This document shows, piece after piece, positions 26,609 through 35,979 of a DNA stretch of 64,000 nucleotides. Both the position numbers and the translations under genes were made by a program. Under the pieces are notes generated by a model. It made no database searches. It saw nothing but the letters and a program-made list of their open reading frames with translations, and had not been told where the DNA came from. The stretch lies in the IMG/VR virus record IMGVR_UViG_3300021197_001995, positions 62,001 through 126,000 of that record, one strand, 5' to 3'. The first letter of the stretch is position 1. Each line of letters starts with the position of its first letter. Origin of the DNA: a virus.

Positions 26609-27175
26609 ATGTCAGGAAATAATTTTTGGAGCGAAGCAAGAACGGAACCAAAGAGGAAGTTTAGATACCTCCTCTACTTTGCAGGGATGCCACAATTCAT
26701 GGCTAAGACAGTGACGAAGCCATCATTCCAGGTGGGCTCCACTACTCACAGTTTTTTGCAACACAACTTCAACTTCCCAGGTAGAGTAACTTGGCAAGAT
26801 GTCAGCGTTACGATCGTAGATCCGATCCAGCCTGACGCAACCCAGAGTCTTTACAACATACTTAAGAGTTCGGGGTACGTTTTACCAACCGACGTCATGT
26901 CCTCGCCTGAGGGCAAGGCTACGATTACGAAAGCGGGCATGATTGACTCCCTAGGGCCTAACATCAGGATAGACACCATTGGTTCAGGTGGAGCAGACGA
27001 CATAATAGAATCGTGGATTCTTAACAATCCACTAATAACTTCAGTAAATTTTGATTCACTGGATTATTCGTCTGACGATATTCTCAACATTCAGATCGGG
27101 CTCAAGTACGATTGGGCAGAATTAAATAACGACATCTTGTCTGCAGAGGCAGGAACCGCTTGGAATGAAGAGTAA
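26609..27175 (+). CDS. 19: Tail tube protein (gp19-like)
   Basis: Forms the inner tube. 188 residues against 163 in T4. Family features: 'FRYLLYFAGMPQFMAKTVTK' near residue 19, 'HNFNFPGRVTWQDVSVTIVD' near 53 and 'ILNIQIGLKYDWAELN' near 157. Follows sheath as in T4. A CTATATACT stretch at 26583 is a distant relative of the late element. Confidence 0.93.
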   Translation: MSGNNFWSEARTEPKRKFRYLLYFAGMPQFMAKTVTKPSFQVGSTTHSFLQHNFNFPGRVTWQDVSVTIVDPIQPDATQSLYNILKSSGYVLPTDVMSSPEGKATITKAGMIDSLGPNIRIDTIGSGGADDIIESWILNNPLITSVNFDSLDYSSDDILNIQIGLKYDWAELNNDILSAEAGTAWNEE

Positions 27176-27231: not shown

Positions 27232-28113
27232 GTGACTAGAAACTCCAGAAAACTTCAGAGATCCCCACAGCCAGATTACGATCCCAACACAGAACAAGTC
27301 AAAGTGAAAAGCCAAGCGCAAAACAAAAATGCGAACTCGGCTAATCCCTTTGGTATGTCCTTTGTTGTTTCGACGGCAAAAGTTGAACTTCCAACGAAAG
27401 GGCTATTCTATCCAAGAGGCTCAAGTATGCATGGCATCGAAGAGTTAGAAATCAAACACATGACCGCGAAGGAAGAAGACCTCTTATCTACCGTCGGATC
27501 CGGCGCAGATGAAAATGTGTTCAATAACTTAATTTCAGGATTACTAACTGACAAGACAATAGACCCCTCAGAACTGCTGGACGAAGACAAGATGGCGATT
27601 CTACTGAAAGCTCGCGAAACTGGCTATGGAAACGAATACGAATCAACAATCTTTTGTGAAAATTGTAATAGTGAGACCAGTGCTGTTTTTGACTTGTCGA
27701 AGGCCAAAGTCACTTCAATCGCAGAAGAGAATCAATATGATCCCGATGAAGATTGTTTCGTTTTAACCTTGCCCATCTCGGACATTGAAGTAAAAATAAG
27801 AAGGATCACGGAAAAAGATCGAACGGAGATTGACCAGGACAAGGAAAAGAAAGAGAGTTTAAACATAGAGTTTAATCGGACTATCTCTATCTTGAAAAAA
27901 ACTATTATCTCCGCCAACGGAATCGTTGACCAAGCAACTCTATCAAAGCTTTATAATGTGTTGCCTGCAGCCGATGCAAAATTTCTATTAAATTTTGACA
28001 AAGACATAATACCAAAGCTGAGTACAGCACAGAACGTCGAATGTTCTAAGTGCGCGACGGTACTTGAAAGAGAGGCGCCTCTCTCGTGGGCCTTTTTTCG
28101 CACTGACATCTGA
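27232..28113 (+). CDS. Baseplate hub/tail assembly chaperone (gp26-like)
   Basis: 293 residues from a GTG start. After a disordered head, 'KVELPTKGLFYPRGS' near residue 46 and 'IKHMTAKEEDLL' near 73 match the T4 baseplate-protein family of gp26. Two Cys pairs ('CENC' near 141 and 'CSKC' near 267) suggest a zinc-bound knuckle. It lies between tube and tape measure, where other tailed phages encode a tail chaperone with a frameshifted extension, and an overlapping second frame is open at its 3' end. Confidence 0.75.
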   Translation: MTRNSRKLQRSPQPDYDPNTEQVKVKSQAQNKNANSANPFGMSFVVSTAKVELPTKGLFYPRGSSMHGIEELEIKHMTAKEEDLLSTVGSGADENVFNNLISGLLTDKTIDPSELLDEDKMAILLKARETGYGNEYESTIFCENCNSETSAVFDLSKAKVTSIAEENQYDPDEDCFVLTLPISDIEVKIRRITEKDRTEIDQDKEKKESLNIEFNRTISILKKTIISANGIVDQATLSKLYNVLPAADAKFLLNFDKDIIPKLSTAQNVECSKCATVLEREAPLSWAFFRTDI

Positions 28114-28261
28114 ATATATTGAAAGAGTCACGTACGAAGAGATTTTTCTCTTAATGAAAGAGAACAATTTTTCTTTCATCGAAGCATATAACCTGCCCGT
28201 CAAGCTTCGCAATTGGTTTGTCGACCGACTAATCAAGTACATTTCCCCAGAGGATGAATAA
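28022..28261 (+). CDS. Second frame of tail chaperone, probably reached by frameshift
   Basis: A frame +1 to the gp26-like gene is open from 28022 to the TGA-free stop at 28259. It has no ATG or GTG near its start and no Shine-Dalgarno; the only candidate is TTG at 28064. After the shared region it encodes 'ALTSEYIERVTYEEIFLLM' and 'NLPVKLRNWFVDRL', a helical tail-chaperone-like segment. The run CCTTTTTTCG at 28091-28100 is where both frames read Phe-Phe, so a +1 or -2 slip would fuse them smoothly. It sits just before the tape measure gene, the classical place for this mechanism. Confidence 0.55.
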   Translation, partial: VQHRTSNVLSARRYLKERRLSRGPFFALTSEYIERVTYEEIFLLMKENNFSFIEAYNLPVKLRNWFVDRLIKYISPEDE

Positions 28262-28288: not shown

Positions 28289-28336
28289 GTATGATTTTAT
28301 ATTTCGACCCGAAGATTGAAGGAGAACGTTAGTGCA

Positions 28337-30424
28337 ATGAATTGGAATACTCTAACCGAGGCCGTGAGGTCACGCCTGACGTCACAGGGTGAAACTGAAA
28401 AAAGTTTCATGGCGAAAACCGAGGGGCAGAGGCAGAAGTTGCTCGCCGGCGTCAATAAGTTGCTGGGCGACGGCGCTAGTAAAAGGACAGAAAACAACGA
28501 ACCTTCGCGTATGGGGCTACCCTCTGCTAAGGACTTAGGTACGTTTACAGACATCGCCACGGCCATGGCCAGAGAAGCGGAGGAAACCGAGAAAGCTCTC
28601 CGCGCAATGAACGCCGCGGGCCAGAACTTTTTTGATGGAAACGCAGCAAAGGGTATTGCTGAGGTAACGAAAGCTTTAAACTTAAAGACGGGACAGATAC
28701 GACTCGGAGCAGAAGCATTTTTTCAGCTAAATGAAAAAGTGAACGCATTCGCATACCTCAGTGAAGAGGCTTTCAACAAAAACGGAAGACTATCTGCTTC
28801 ACTAGCAGAGCAGGCCGGCATCTTAAAACAGCTAGGCTTGAATTACGGAAACTTCGCTGCGAACACGGACACGGCAATCCACTCGCTTCAACTTAACGAA
28901 GAAGGGGTCAAGAAGTTCAACCTAAGTATAAAGACGCTAGCAGACGACCTGAAGATGCTACCAGATGAGGTCTCCAGGAACTTTCAAAAAGTTTCGAAAA
29001 ACCTAATGTATGATGCGGCAACCATACAATCCCAATTTGTTAAATTTCAAGTCCTGGCCCAAAAGACAGGATTAGAAGCAGATCAGATCGCCGGCAGATT
29101 TGGCTCAGGCATGGACACCATCTCCGGAGCATCTGGTGCCGCGGCCAATATCAACGCACTGCTGGGTCGTAACGCATTTTCCGCAACAGAACTTTTAGGA
29201 ATGGAAGAAGCGGACCGAGCAGAGGCTATCAGAGCGGCGATCCAGGGCGACTCTCAGCTGATGGCAGACATCGACGCCGGCGGCGCCCAAGGAAAATTTG
29301 CAATGATCTCGGTTGCTGAGTCCCTTGGTATGGGCAGGGACGAGGCGCGCCGCTTTATCAAGACAGGTGAAAAAGACGACTCTGTTAAATCGAAACTAGA
29401 GAAGGAAATCGGATCTGCCACTGGCGTAAGCAACATCGCTGGTGATGAAAGAATGTCCCGAGTAATTTCGAGCTTCACGACAGGCACATCTGATCTGAAA
29501 AAGGCGTTGGACAAGTTAACCGACACATACGAGAGGGGGCTAGATCCTCAAATGTCATTCGCGGTGCAGAACCGTCGACTGCTTCTTGAAAAAGCCAACC
29601 GCGGCGAATTCGCGGGTACAGAAGCACTGGGCACCTTCGGGCGCCTAGGTTCCATGACGAAAGGTTTATCCGTAGGTCAATTTAATCAAGCACAACGGCT
29701 TCAACCTGGAATAGGAGGCAGCCTGGAACGTTTGGTCAAAAGATCCCAAATGGGACTCTACGACACTTCCTCTAGCGAATTCCAAACAATGATTTCCCAA
29801 TTGACGTCAACAGACGAAAAAGAGAGAGCCACCGGCGCCAGCACTTTGGACGAAATCACTCGTAAGAGTCCCAAGAGGGATGAAGACGCAATTAGAAAAC
29901 AAGGCGGGATAGGCCCCGCGGCAATGAGCGTGATCACACGCGTCTCGAACATGTCAGAATACTCCGGCCGTCGCATGATGTCGGTATTTATGGAAAGATT
30001 CAGAGGCAAGAACCCAACAGAAGAGCAGGCAAAGGCCTTTGCCGAGGAGTACAAGAAATCTGACGAGTTTGCAGAAAGCGAAAAGATAGATTATGAAATG
30101 ACCGCGGTCAACGCGCGCCTCAAGGATACAACAAAAGAAGGTCGCGCCGCGAGCATAGACGATTTTAGCAGCGACTTTGGTGAAGGTTCCAGCCGCTTTA
30201 GCCGCTTAAAAGAATCTGCGCGCTCCAGCTTCCTCAGAGAGTCTGAGAAAAAAAGAAGAAAAGATAATGAATCAAAAAACAATCTTGAAGGGCCCTCCGG
30301 CTCGACGCAAAGAACGACAGACTCTTCTGGGAACACGATCGTGAACTTTTTACTAAATGATACAATTTTGGCTTCTGCTGTAATAAAGGGCACACATAAA
30401 GTACTAGGCAGAACAACAGAATGA
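28337..30424 (+). CDS. Tape measure protein (gp29-like, tentative)
   Basis: The ATG at 28337 follows AGGAGA; an upstream in-frame TTG at 28316 overlaps that site. 695 residues, almost wholly helical and Ala/Glu/Lys-rich, with no Cys-rich or enzymatic motif. Helical composition, length (T4 gp29 is 590) and position after tube and tail-chaperone genes fit the tape measure, which sets tail length during tube assembly. At about 1.5 angstrom per residue it would specify a tail near 100 nm. Confidence 0.65.
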   Translation: MNWNTLTEAVRSRLTSQGETEKSFMAKTEGQRQKLLAGVNKLLGDGASKRTENNEPSRMGLPSAKDLGTFTDIATAMAREAEETEKALRAMNAAGQNFFDGNAAKGIAEVTKALNLKTGQIRLGAEAFFQLNEKVNAFAYLSEEAFNKNGRLSASLAEQAGILKQLGLNYGNFAANTDTAIHSLQLNEEGVKKFNLSIKTLADDLKMLPDEVSRNFQKVSKNLMYDAATIQSQFVKFQVLAQKTGLEADQIAGRFGSGMDTISGASGAAANINALLGRNAFSATELLGMEEADRAEAIRAAIQGDSQLMADIDAGGAQGKFAMISVAESLGMGRDEARRFIKTGEKDDSVKSKLEKEIGSATGVSNIAGDERMSRVISSFTTGTSDLKKALDKLTDTYERGLDPQMSFAVQNRRLLLEKANRGEFAGTEALGTFGRLGSMTKGLSVGQFNQAQRLQPGIGGSLERLVKRSQMGLYDTSSSEFQTMISQLTSTDEKERATGASTLDEITRKSPKRDEDAIRKQGGIGPAAMSVITRVSNMSEYSGRRMMSVFMERFRGKNPTEEQAKAFAEEYKKSDEFAESEKIDYEMTAVNARLKDTTKEGRAASIDDFSSDFGEGSSRFSRLKESARSSFLRESEKKRRKDNESKNNLEGPSGSTQRTTDSSGNTIVNFLLNDTILASAVIKGTHKVLGRTTE

Positions 30425-31090: not shown

Positions 31091-31444
31091 TTGACAGAAT
31101 GGACAAAAAGTGGTAGAGTATTAAGCAACAATGACAAGATATATCAGAGCTTCATGAAGAAGACAGGAACCAGAAACGTCGATCATTACGGACTGGTGAT
31201 CTTTGGGGATCCCATGCAGGAAGATTTTTTGAGTGAGATTTCAACGTCGGAGCACGTCTACTCAGTTGGGGATAGTCTGAGCAAGATCGCGTTTAAAGAA
31301 TACGGTGACCCAAGGCTTTGGTGGATCTTAGCTTGGTTTAACACCAAGCCAACAGACATGCACATCGACATCGGCGAACGAATTTACGCGCCACACCCGG
31401 TCGAAGAAGCGATACATCAAGCTCTGAAAGAGTTAGACTCATGA
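31091..31444 (+). CDS. 53: LysM-like baseplate wedge protein (gp53-like)
   Basis: 117 residues from a TTG start with AGGAGG upstream. Residues ~58-103 form a LysM-like fold: 'EHVYSVGDSLSKIAFKEYGD' then 'WWILAWFN' and 'IDIGERIYAPHP'. T4 gp53, a baseplate wedge subunit, carries such a domain; small phage LysM baseplate proteins are also common. Its stop overlaps the next start (ATGA). Confidence 0.7.
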   Translation: MTEWTKSGRVLSNNDKIYQSFMKKTGTRNVDHYGLVIFGDPMQEDFLSEISTSEHVYSVGDSLSKIAFKEYGDPRLWWILAWFNTKPTDMHIDIGERIYAPHPVEEAIHQALKELDS

Positions 31445-33747: not shown

Positions 33748-34913
33748 CTGAAGAAAAGTTTTTAGGGGGGTCGACCGTGGATCTCCAACTAGAGTTTTCG
33801 GAAAGAAGAAAATTTCTTGACTTTTTTAGGTCGAAAGGGTATCCTTTGCTTGATACCTTGTACGACAAAAGGTTGTACGGATTTGTGAACCACTTGGGCG
33901 AAGTTGTAATGCCTACTCCGACCCCCAAAAGGTTTGGAACAGACTCTGGATCCGTAACGGGGATTAATTATGTGGTGGATTTGTTTAATAAATTTCGAAA
34001 GATGTATGTCAACACTCCAGCACTAAAATTTCCGACCGCGGTTGCACAGCTCAAGCCGCGCAAAAGTTTTCAGAAGTTTGAGACAAGCTATAATGAGTAT
34101 GAAATACTTTTAGTCAACAAGCTCCTTCCAATCTTGATTGAAAGGATCCCAGACCCTAGTCCCTCCTTGGCAAGGTTCCTCGATGTTCTTGAGGCCTCAA
34201 TTTTCGACCCGGAGATGCAAGGCTACCCGATCACCCGATCAGGTTTTGCGTTGTCTAACCGGTCCACGGCTTATCACACTGGTTTATATGTCGATGTACT
34301 GTCGGGACAAGATACAAACCTAGACCAGCAAAAAGCTAATATTCTGGCCGATCCGGATTTTGAATGTTATGTTAGTATGGCACACGAACACGGATTTCTC
34401 GTCGACGCCAACGCTCCATGGCGACTAGTGGCTGATCTTGACTCGCCGATTGTAAAACGGAACATTATGAATGGAAGAGCCATCTCAGAGTTCAACGCGT
34501 TTTATCGTGATGTGTATACTATAAAGGTGGCGCATGACGATTATTGGTCGCTTAAATCTTTCTGCGCAAAATTTTATGTAGAATTTTACAACCAGAACAA
34601 CCAACCGTTATCATCTATGAGAAAGGATGTTACTACCGATCGTTACCTGGAATTCTTGATGACGTGTCACTTCAAAAACTTGTCGCTAATGTTTAATCTA
34701 GAGGGGAAAGAATCAGTTCTTTTTTCAAAAACTCTGAAAAAAGCACTTGACACAAACAGAATTTATGGGTTAACATCTAATGCTGGCGCCATCGGATTTA
34801 TTGAATCCTTTGTCTCCTCACAAATACTAAAAAAATTGGAAAAAAATGAAAATACTTCAAACGCTGGACATCAACAACAAGTGCCAGGGGATTTACCACT
34901 CTTGCGAATTTAA
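33744..34913 (+). CDS. Baseplate-region structural protein, unknown
   Basis: 389 residues, soluble, Phe/Tyr-rich, mostly helical, with 'RLVADLDSPIVKR' near residue 233. It starts four bases before the upstream stop. Its 3' end overlaps the polymerase gene by 68 bases, an unusually long overlap, so its last ~20 residues are constrained by another protein. It is the last gene of the structural module. No family recognised. Confidence 0.5.
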   Translation: MTEEKFLGGSTVDLQLEFSERRKFLDFFRSKGYPLLDTLYDKRLYGFVNHLGEVVMPTPTPKRFGTDSGSVTGINYVVDLFNKFRKMYVNTPALKFPTAVAQLKPRKSFQKFETSYNEYEILLVNKLLPILIERIPDPSPSLARFLDVLEASIFDPEMQGYPITRSGFALSNRSTAYHTGLYVDVLSGQDTNLDQQKANILADPDFECYVSMAHEHGFLVDANAPWRLVADLDSPIVKRNIMNGRAISEFNAFYRDVYTIKVAHDDYWSLKSFCAKFYVEFYNQNNQPLSSMRKDVTTDRYLEFLMTCHFKNLSLMFNLEGKESVLFSKTLKKALDTNRIYGLTSNAGAIGFIESFVSSQILKKLEKNENTSNAGHQQQVPGDLPLLRI

Positions 34914-35979
34914 ATTCAAAGATTATGAAAATCTACTTTCGCAATACTCCTTGGCGTGGAAACACTCCCCAATTTTAAATGATGAAAACTACAGATACCT
35001 ATTCTTATCATCGAAGAACGAGGATTTGTCTCTGTTTTCACGAACTCAAGATAGTTATGGAGAACTTAAACAGGTACTCGAAGCTCAAAGAAGAGCATCG
35101 CTTACGGCGAAGATAGATCTAGAAGAGAAATGTTTCCTTGACGTATTGCCGACCCATCAACTCTCCAAGTGGTTCGAGTTGCGAGAGGACGCCTTGCAGA
35201 ATCTTTACAACGAGAAGCAACAAGAAGACGACTATGACATTCTACACAAGGCCCACGTCCTAACTTCGGAGATCGCTCATCAGGATTTAATGTTCGAGGG
35301 CAAGAAAGGCAGAGTTCAATACAACATCTTCGGCTCGGCAACAGGAAGACTAACCACCAAGAAAGGTTCAGTACCCATCATGACTCTAAAGAAGGAAGAT
35401 AGGCATAAAATTACCCCTCAGAACGATGCTTTCGTGGAACTAGACTTAAACGCTGCAGAGATACGTACGTTAATGGCTCTATCAGGCCGAGAACAGCCGC
35501 AGGAGGACATTCACGAGTGGGTCGTGGAGAATGTGTTCAATGGAGAGATAGAACGCTCTAAAGCGAAGGTAGAGTTATTTGCATGGCTGTATAACCCTTC
35601 AAGTTCAAAATCCCAATTCGACAAATTTTTTTCTCGGCAAATTTTTCGAGATTTTTTTGCCCCTGGAAACCAGACGCTGAAAACCCCATTTGGTAGAGTC
35701 TTGGCGGTAGACGAAAGAAAAGCGCAAAATTACTTGCTTCAATCGACGACTTCTGATATAGTTATACAAAACGCATACAAGATTATGAAGATGCTAAAGG
35801 GCAAAAGGTCCAAAATAGCGTTTACACTGCACGATTCGATTATTATTGACATGTGCAAAAAAGATGCTATAATGTTAAAAGAAATAAAAAAACAATTCGA
35901 AGAAACGCCATGGGGCCCTTTCCTGAGTACGTGCAATGTAGGGAAAAACTTTGGAAACTTAAAGGAGCTAAAGATTTGA
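34846..35979 (+). CDS. Minimal family A DNA polymerase-like protein
   Basis: 377 residues, about a third of E. coli Pol I and far below the ~600 of a Klenow fragment. All core polymerase motifs are visible: 'GSATGRLTT' at 163-171 (Pol I TATGRL), motif A 'LDLNAAEIRTL' with Asp200, motif B R237-x3-K241-x3-F-x3-Y249 (Gly replaced by Asn250), and motif C 'LHDSIIID' with His329-Asp330. No 3'-5' or 5'-3' exonuclease domain and a reduced thumb (residues 1-150). T4 uses a family B enzyme instead. It could be an accessory gap-filling or translesion polymerase. Start overlaps the upstream gene by 68 bases. Confidence 0.8.
   Translation: MKILQTLDINNKCQGIYHSCEFKFKDYENLLSQYSLAWKHSPILNDENYRYLFLSSKNEDLSLFSRTQDSYGELKQVLEAQRRASLTAKIDLEEKCFLDVLPTHQLSKWFELREDALQNLYNEKQQEDDYDILHKAHVLTSEIAHQDLMFEGKKGRVQYNIFGSATGRLTTKKGSVPIMTLKKEDRHKITPQNDAFVELDLNAAEIRTLMALSGREQPQEDIHEWVVENVFNGEIERSKAKVELFAWLYNPSSSKSQFDKFFSRQIFRDFFAPGNQTLKTPFGRVLAVDERKAQNYLLQSTTSDIVIQNAYKIMKMLKGKRSKIAFTLHDSIIIDMCKKDAIMLKEIKKQFEETPWGPFLSTCNVGKNFGNLKELKI
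35846..35873 (+). promoter_or_regulatory. Consensus sigma-70 promoter inside polymerase gene
   Basis: TTGACA and TATAAT, both perfect, 16 bases apart, in the 3' end of the polymerase-like gene. Predicted start near 35880, about 95 bases before the FtsZ-like gene. Confidence 0.7.

What the first reader, a model, noticed from the sequence alone, without database searches (positions are those of the whole stretch)
28022..28261. Candidate programmed frameshift in the tail chaperone before the tape measure
The gp26-like gene ends in TGA at 28113 while a +1 frame open from 28022 continues to 28261 with no ATG/GTG and no ribosome site. Both frames read Phe-Phe at CCTTTTTTCG (28091-28100), so a +1 or -2 slip gives a smooth join 'AFF-ALTSEYIERV'. 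Tail chaperone frameshifts upstream of tape measure genes are conserved in many tailed phages but are not classical in T4.
Basis: partly seen in the sequence, partly recalled or inferred. Interest (0 to 1): 0.7.

Follow-up and report, generated by a model that had tools for sequence, protein, structure and literature searches.

The report
Tail-chaperone frameshift in T4-like phages
This virus very probably makes two versions of a tail-building helper protein from one gene by having some ribosomes skip one base at a run of T's; the trick itself is known in phages, but here the skip is forward, the opposite of the cyanophage version of the same gene, and the helper signals around it are mirrored too.

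Summary
A gp26-like gene (27232-28113, PF12322) ends 4 codons after TTT TTT C (28093-28099). A +1 frame, open 28022-28258 with no ATG or GTG, continues past its stop.

Comparative evidence makes this a programmed frameshift. The slip motif plus open +1 frame occurs in 79 of 80 relatives (the other is cut off by its contig end). TTT is invariant in the second slip codon (53/53 non-redundant). Synonymous conservation peaks there. The +1 segment is under purifying selection (dN/dS ~0.14). No start codon is conserved. Variants TTC TTT T and TTT CTA T favour +1 over -2 and over transcriptional slippage. A Shine-Dalgarno-like GGAGG and a covarying hairpin lie just 5' of the slip in most relatives, less clearly in the window itself.

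The fused product matches the cyanophage gp26-gp51 pair, which has a -1 site (T TTT TTC, 79/79), and through it T4 gp51. It is the tail assembly chaperone short/long pair (lambda G/GT type).

Such chaperones, with -1 signals in some T4-like phages, were reported earlier (Vladimirov 2022, paper not readable here). The +1 version with a 5' stem, mirror image of the -1 version with a 3' stem, appears to be a new variant. Expression is untested.

The parts
26609..27175 (+). tail tube protein, upstream neighbour
   Evidence: phrog_4542 tail tube E 2e-23
27232..28113 (+). short chaperone form (TAC-N), gp26-like, 293 aa, with two CxxC pairs
   Evidence: PF12322 E 6e-12, phrog_150 E 1e-13; fold matches T4-like baseplate hub/gp26 models in the viral structure library, E down to 4e-19; only PF12322 match in the 159 kb record
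28069..28092 (+). 5' stimulator region: weak SD-like GAGAGG and possible hairpin; in relatives GGAGGT plus a 5-bp stem ending next to the slip
   Evidence: in the window alone the hairpin is not significant (synonymous null p 0.14)
28093..28099 (+). slip site TTT TTT C; P-site Phe-tRNA shifts +1 from TTT to TTC
   Evidence: second TTT invariant 53/53, always followed by T or C
28111..28113 (+). 0-frame stop TGA of the short form
   Evidence: 0-frame stop 5-6 codons after the first slip codon in nearly all relatives
28100..28261 (+). +1-frame C-terminal extension (TAC-C / T-like), 53 aa plus stop
   Evidence: no stops over the 38 codons examined in any of 53 NR loci, dN/dS about 0.14; homologous to the cyanophage gp51 segment; predicted helical, pLDDT 84
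28316..30424 (+). probable tape measure gene
   Evidence: position; annotated tape measure gene at the same place in LIS04 and immuto; no profile match

Best explanation
A programmed +1 ribosomal frameshift makes two forms of one tail assembly chaperone. Most ribosomes stop at 28113 and give the short form. A fraction slip +1 when Phe-tRNA is on the second TTT (28096-28098 to TTC 28097-28099) and continue in the +1 frame to 28258, giving a long form of about 342 aa with the junction ...LSWAFF-ALTSEYIERV.... Shown by comparative sequence analysis: the conserved slip site, selection on the +1 segment, conserved 5' SD-like and stem signals in the clade, and homology to gp26/gp51. Inferred: that the ribosome really slips, the ratio of products, that the SD and 5' stem push the ribosome forward, and that the short form coats the tape measure while the extension recruits tail tube, as in lambda G/GT.
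For: Motif and open +1 ORF in 79/80 loci. Synonymous conservation peaks at the slip (z about 11) with TTT 53/53. In the +1 frame, conservation starts at the slip and there are no stops over 38 codons in 53 NR loci. dN/dS is about 0.14 in +1 against 1.97 for the same DNA read in frame 0. 21/53 NR loci have no ATG/GTG/TTG from -45 to +21, and six have a +1-frame stop 2-8 nt before the slip. SD-like 46/53 vs 17 expected; stem stability sum z -16 against a synonymous null; stem covariation 0/500 shuffles. Profile homology is colinear through the junction to the -1 clade (prob 98.9, E 2.6e-17), and from there to full-length T4 gp51 (prob 99.3, E 4e-20). The same arrangement is found in isolates Mel-JY01, immuto and RM378.
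Against: No expression data. There is no stop codon in the A site and no clearly rare codon there (CGC 7.0 per thousand). The SD is 20 nt from the P-site codon, not the 3 nt reported for known +1 stimulators (PMC5009743). The window's own SD and hairpin are weak.
Confidence: 0.88

Rival explanations
1. Independent initiation or reinitiation makes the T segment as a separate small protein.
For: 10/53 NR loci have a start codon with an SD-like sequence near the slip; in the cyanophage -1 clade an ATG lies 14 nt after the slip in 50/79; one distant huge phage has TAATG with a separate ORF (L088).
Against: 21/53 NR loci have no ATG/GTG/TTG in the region; six have a +1 stop right before the slip; slip codons are under synonymous constraint that separate initiation does not explain; in many cyanophages the ATG is inside a stable stem.
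Confidence: 0.06
2. A -2 ribosomal shift instead of +1.
For: It gives the same frame; T-runs allow it in most loci.
Against: Variants TTC TTT T, TTT CTT T and TTT CTA T allow a P-site +1 re-pairing (TTT to TTT or TTC, CTT to TTT) but give poor -2 re-pairing.
Confidence: 0.05
3. Transcriptional slippage on the T run produces mRNAs one base shorter.
For: Runs of 6-7 T in most loci.
Against: Ten of 53 NR loci have TTC TTT T, a run of only four T, and immuto-type loci have TTTCTTT or TTTCTAT; SD and stem signals point to the ribosome.
Confidence: 0.02
4. Sequencing or assembly error, or a decayed gene.
For: Homopolymer runs are error-prone.
Against: The same break recurs in about 80 contigs and in isolate genomes; both coding segments are conserved, and the +1 segment is under purifying selection.
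Confidence: 0.01

Closest known systems
Tail assembly chaperones of T4-like phages (gp26/gp51; Vladimirov, Gautam & Davidson 2022, Virology 566:9-15)
   Same: Same protein family (PF12322/phrog_150), same short and long logic. Some T4-like phages carry separate short and long genes instead of a frameshift (as summarised in PRFect); -1 poly-T signals in TAC-N genes of T4-like phages are attributed to this paper (PMC12846349).
   Different: Here one gene, +1 shift, 5' stem. The 2022 paper was not readable, so whether it covers this clade is unknown.
Lambda G/GT frameshift
   Different: Lambda is -1; no sequence relation was tested or shown.
Cyanophage gp26-gp51 (Kyanoviridae and other T4-like groups)
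   Same: Homologous in both parts; Phe-Phe slip at the same place.
   Different: -1 at T TTT TTC with SD 8-9 nt upstream and a 3' stem; usually annotated as two genes; PMC3037559 notes cyanophage gp51 is only about 20% of T4 length.
prfB (release factor 2) +1 frameshift
   Same: P-site slip of a U-rich codon followed by U or C, SD-like stimulator.
   Different: No stop codon at the shift site; SD is 20 nt away instead of 3, with a hairpin in between.

Membership tests
Tail assembly chaperone TAC-N/TAC-NC (lambda G/GT type) | gene pair lies between tail tube and tape measure genes | tested here: met
   tail tube upstream by profile; tape measure by position and annotated relatives, no profile hit in the window
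Tail assembly chaperone TAC-N/TAC-NC (lambda G/GT type) | conserved out-of-frame C-terminal extension reached through a conserved slip site | tested here: met
Tail assembly chaperone TAC-N/TAC-NC (lambda G/GT type) | both forms are made in a controlled ratio and are absent from the virion | not testable with these tools
   needs proteomics
Tail assembly chaperone TAC-N/TAC-NC (lambda G/GT type) | short form binds the tape measure, extension binds the tube | not testable with these tools
   needs binding assays
T4 gp26/gp51 family (PF12322) | N-terminal part matches the family above curated cut-off | tested here: met
   46.2 bits against cut-off 24.5
T4 gp26/gp51 family (PF12322) | extension homologous to the gp51 C-terminus | tested here: inconclusive
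   no significant direct match; supported through the -1 clade: +1 vs -1 extension prob 95.4, -1 extension vs gp51 prob 97.5
prfB-type +1 frameshift site | SD sequence about 3 nt before the shift codon | tested here: not met
   GGAGG lies 20 nt before the P-site codon in relatives; about 5 nt if the 15-nt stem-loop is looped out
prfB-type +1 frameshift site | stop codon in the A site | tested here: not met
   A site is CGC in the window, TGG in most relatives

The most novel reading that the evidence does not exclude
One homologous chaperone gene has evolved opposite frameshift directions with mirrored stimulators: +1 with SD plus a 5' stem adjoining a TTT-Y slip and no stop codon, versus -1 with SD, T TTT TTC and a 3' stem. 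The 5' stem would act as a forward motor or spacer that brings the SD close to the P site, a +1 stimulator architecture not previously described to my knowledge.
Probability: 0.5. Interest if true: 0.72.

Novelty: new variant of a known kind. Interest (0 to 1): 0.52.

Why it matters
[quoted passage not shown] The comparison places gp26 and gp51 in one chaperone scheme realised three ways: +1 shift, -1 shift, or gene duplication. It also offers a natural paired system for asking what sets the direction of ribosomal slippage, and it implies that many marine phage genomes miss the long chaperone form in their annotation.

Tried and rejected
Direct profile comparison of the +1 extension with the T4 gp51 C-terminus was not significant; the link needs the cyanophage intermediate. 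The PDB fold search gave only noise for both parts, and a sequence search of PDB with the short form gave nothing. No Rfam family fits. No tRNAs in the window. A conserved hairpin in the immuto clade was not claimed because its P-I-G codons alone favour a palindrome. My first thought that the T4 26/51 duplication was unreported was dropped after the 2022 reference was found.

Full report
OBSERVATION. The window reads as described. The gp26-like ORF 27232-28113 ends 4 codons after TTT TTT C (28093-28099). The +1 frame is open 28022-28258, with only TTG 28064 as a possible start. The window lies in a 159 kb virus record that holds a single PF12322 gene.

RELATIVES. A viral-contig scan gave 320 relatives, of which 80 were kept. 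In 79 of 80 the 0 frame ends shortly after Phe-Phe and a +1 ORF continues with a conserved segment (VYExFFxLKYxGGWSFTEAYNLPVGLRxWFxxRL); L011 is cut by its contig end. After removing near-identical extensions, 53 loci remain. In these the second slip codon is TTT in 53/53 and is followed by T or C; the first codon is TTT (42), TTC (10) or CTT (1). Isolates Mel-JY01, Flavobacterium immuto and Rhodothermus RM378 share the arrangement; in the immuto clade the site is TTT TTT T, TTT CTT T or TTT CTA T. These variants all permit a +1 P-site re-pairing and speak against -2 and against transcriptional slippage.

SELECTION. Synonymous conservation in the 0 frame peaks over the slip (z about 11). Frame-specific conservation switches from 0 to +1 at the slip; the +1 frame has no stops over the 38 codons examined after the slip in any of the 53 loci, while the 0 frame meets stops 5-6 codons after it. 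Pooled dN/dS past the 0-frame stop is 0.14 in the +1 frame and 1.97 when the same DNA is read in frame 0. No start codon is conserved: 21 of 53 have none of ATG/GTG/TTG from -45 to +21, and six have a +1 stop 2-8 nt before the slip.

STIMULATORS. A GGAGG or GAGGT sequence is present in 46 of 53 against 17 expected under synonymous recoding, and the segment just 5' of the slip folds more stably than synonymous recodings (mean -5.8 vs -2.6 kcal/mol). Covariation supports the 5-bp stem: 26 cells changed on both sides vs 13.6 in shuffles, 0/500; shuffles ignore relatedness, so this is suggestive. A scan along the region shows the signal is strongest at -21..+3. The stem is not universal (L056, L061 and the L021/L047/L062 group lack it), and the window's own version is weak (p 0.14).

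WIDER FAMILY. In cyanophages and other T4-like groups the same gene ends with T TTT TTC and a stop soon after. All 79 examined loci have the heptamer (stop one codon later in 78), with an SD-like GGAGGG or GAGGG 8-9 nt upstream in most and a 3' stem at +15..+39. The -1 frame holds the short 'gp51' annotated in many cyanophages. Profile comparison links the +1 and -1 fusions end to end (E 2.6e-17), the two extensions to each other (E 2e-8), and the -1 fusion to full-length T4 gp51 (E 4e-20). T4 gp26 and gp51 are both PF12322. So T4 carries short and long forms as two genes.

FUNCTION. By position (tail tube upstream; annotated tape measure downstream in relatives) and family, the products are the short and long tail assembly chaperone. 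The mechanism of stimulation is inferred. Known +1 SD stimulators sit 3 nt and -1 ones 9-14 nt from the shift site, and a 5' stem is thought to act as a motor in T4 gene 60 bypassing (PMC5009743). The -1 clade is at or near the known spacing. The +1 clade has 20 nt, about 5 nt if the stem-loop is looped out.

PRIOR ART. [quoted passage not shown] 2022 (reference and one-sentence summary in PRFect; poly-T -1 signals attributed to it in PMC12846349). From memory, its abstract says frameshifting is conserved in several T4-like groups while T4 uses separate genes 26 and 51; the paper itself could not be read. I found no paper in the held library describing the +1 form or the mirrored stimulators, which is weak evidence of novelty.

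VERDICT. A real, conserved programmed frameshift by comparative evidence, a new variant of a known kind; not shown experimentally.

Noticed in passing
L099-L178; L091, L272: Cyanophage-type gp26 genes have T TTT TTC plus SD 8-9 nt upstream and a 3' stem of up to about 12 bp; where an ATG start is annotated for the small gp51 it often lies inside that stem.
   Followed up: partly
L092, L095, L160, L270: In some -1 members a GAGGG-type sequence before the slip could pair with CCCTC after the stop, across the slip site.
   Followed up: no
L088 (LR756511 huge phage): The chaperone's C-terminal part appears as a separate ORF with its own ATG overlapping the stop (TAATG), another solution to the same arrangement.
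   Followed up: no
L090, L094: Sinorhizobium phiM9 and Vibrio VAP7 have gp26 followed by a small overlapping -1 ORF with an ATG at the stop (coupled start or -1 shift).
   Followed up: no
window 28718 and 35626: Two other in-frame TTT TTT Y sites in window genes (the tape measure gene and ORF 34846-35979); not examined for frameshifting.
   Followed up: no
window 31091-31444: Small baseplate wedge-like protein (phrog_7145, E 7e-6) downstream of the tape measure gene.
   Followed up: no
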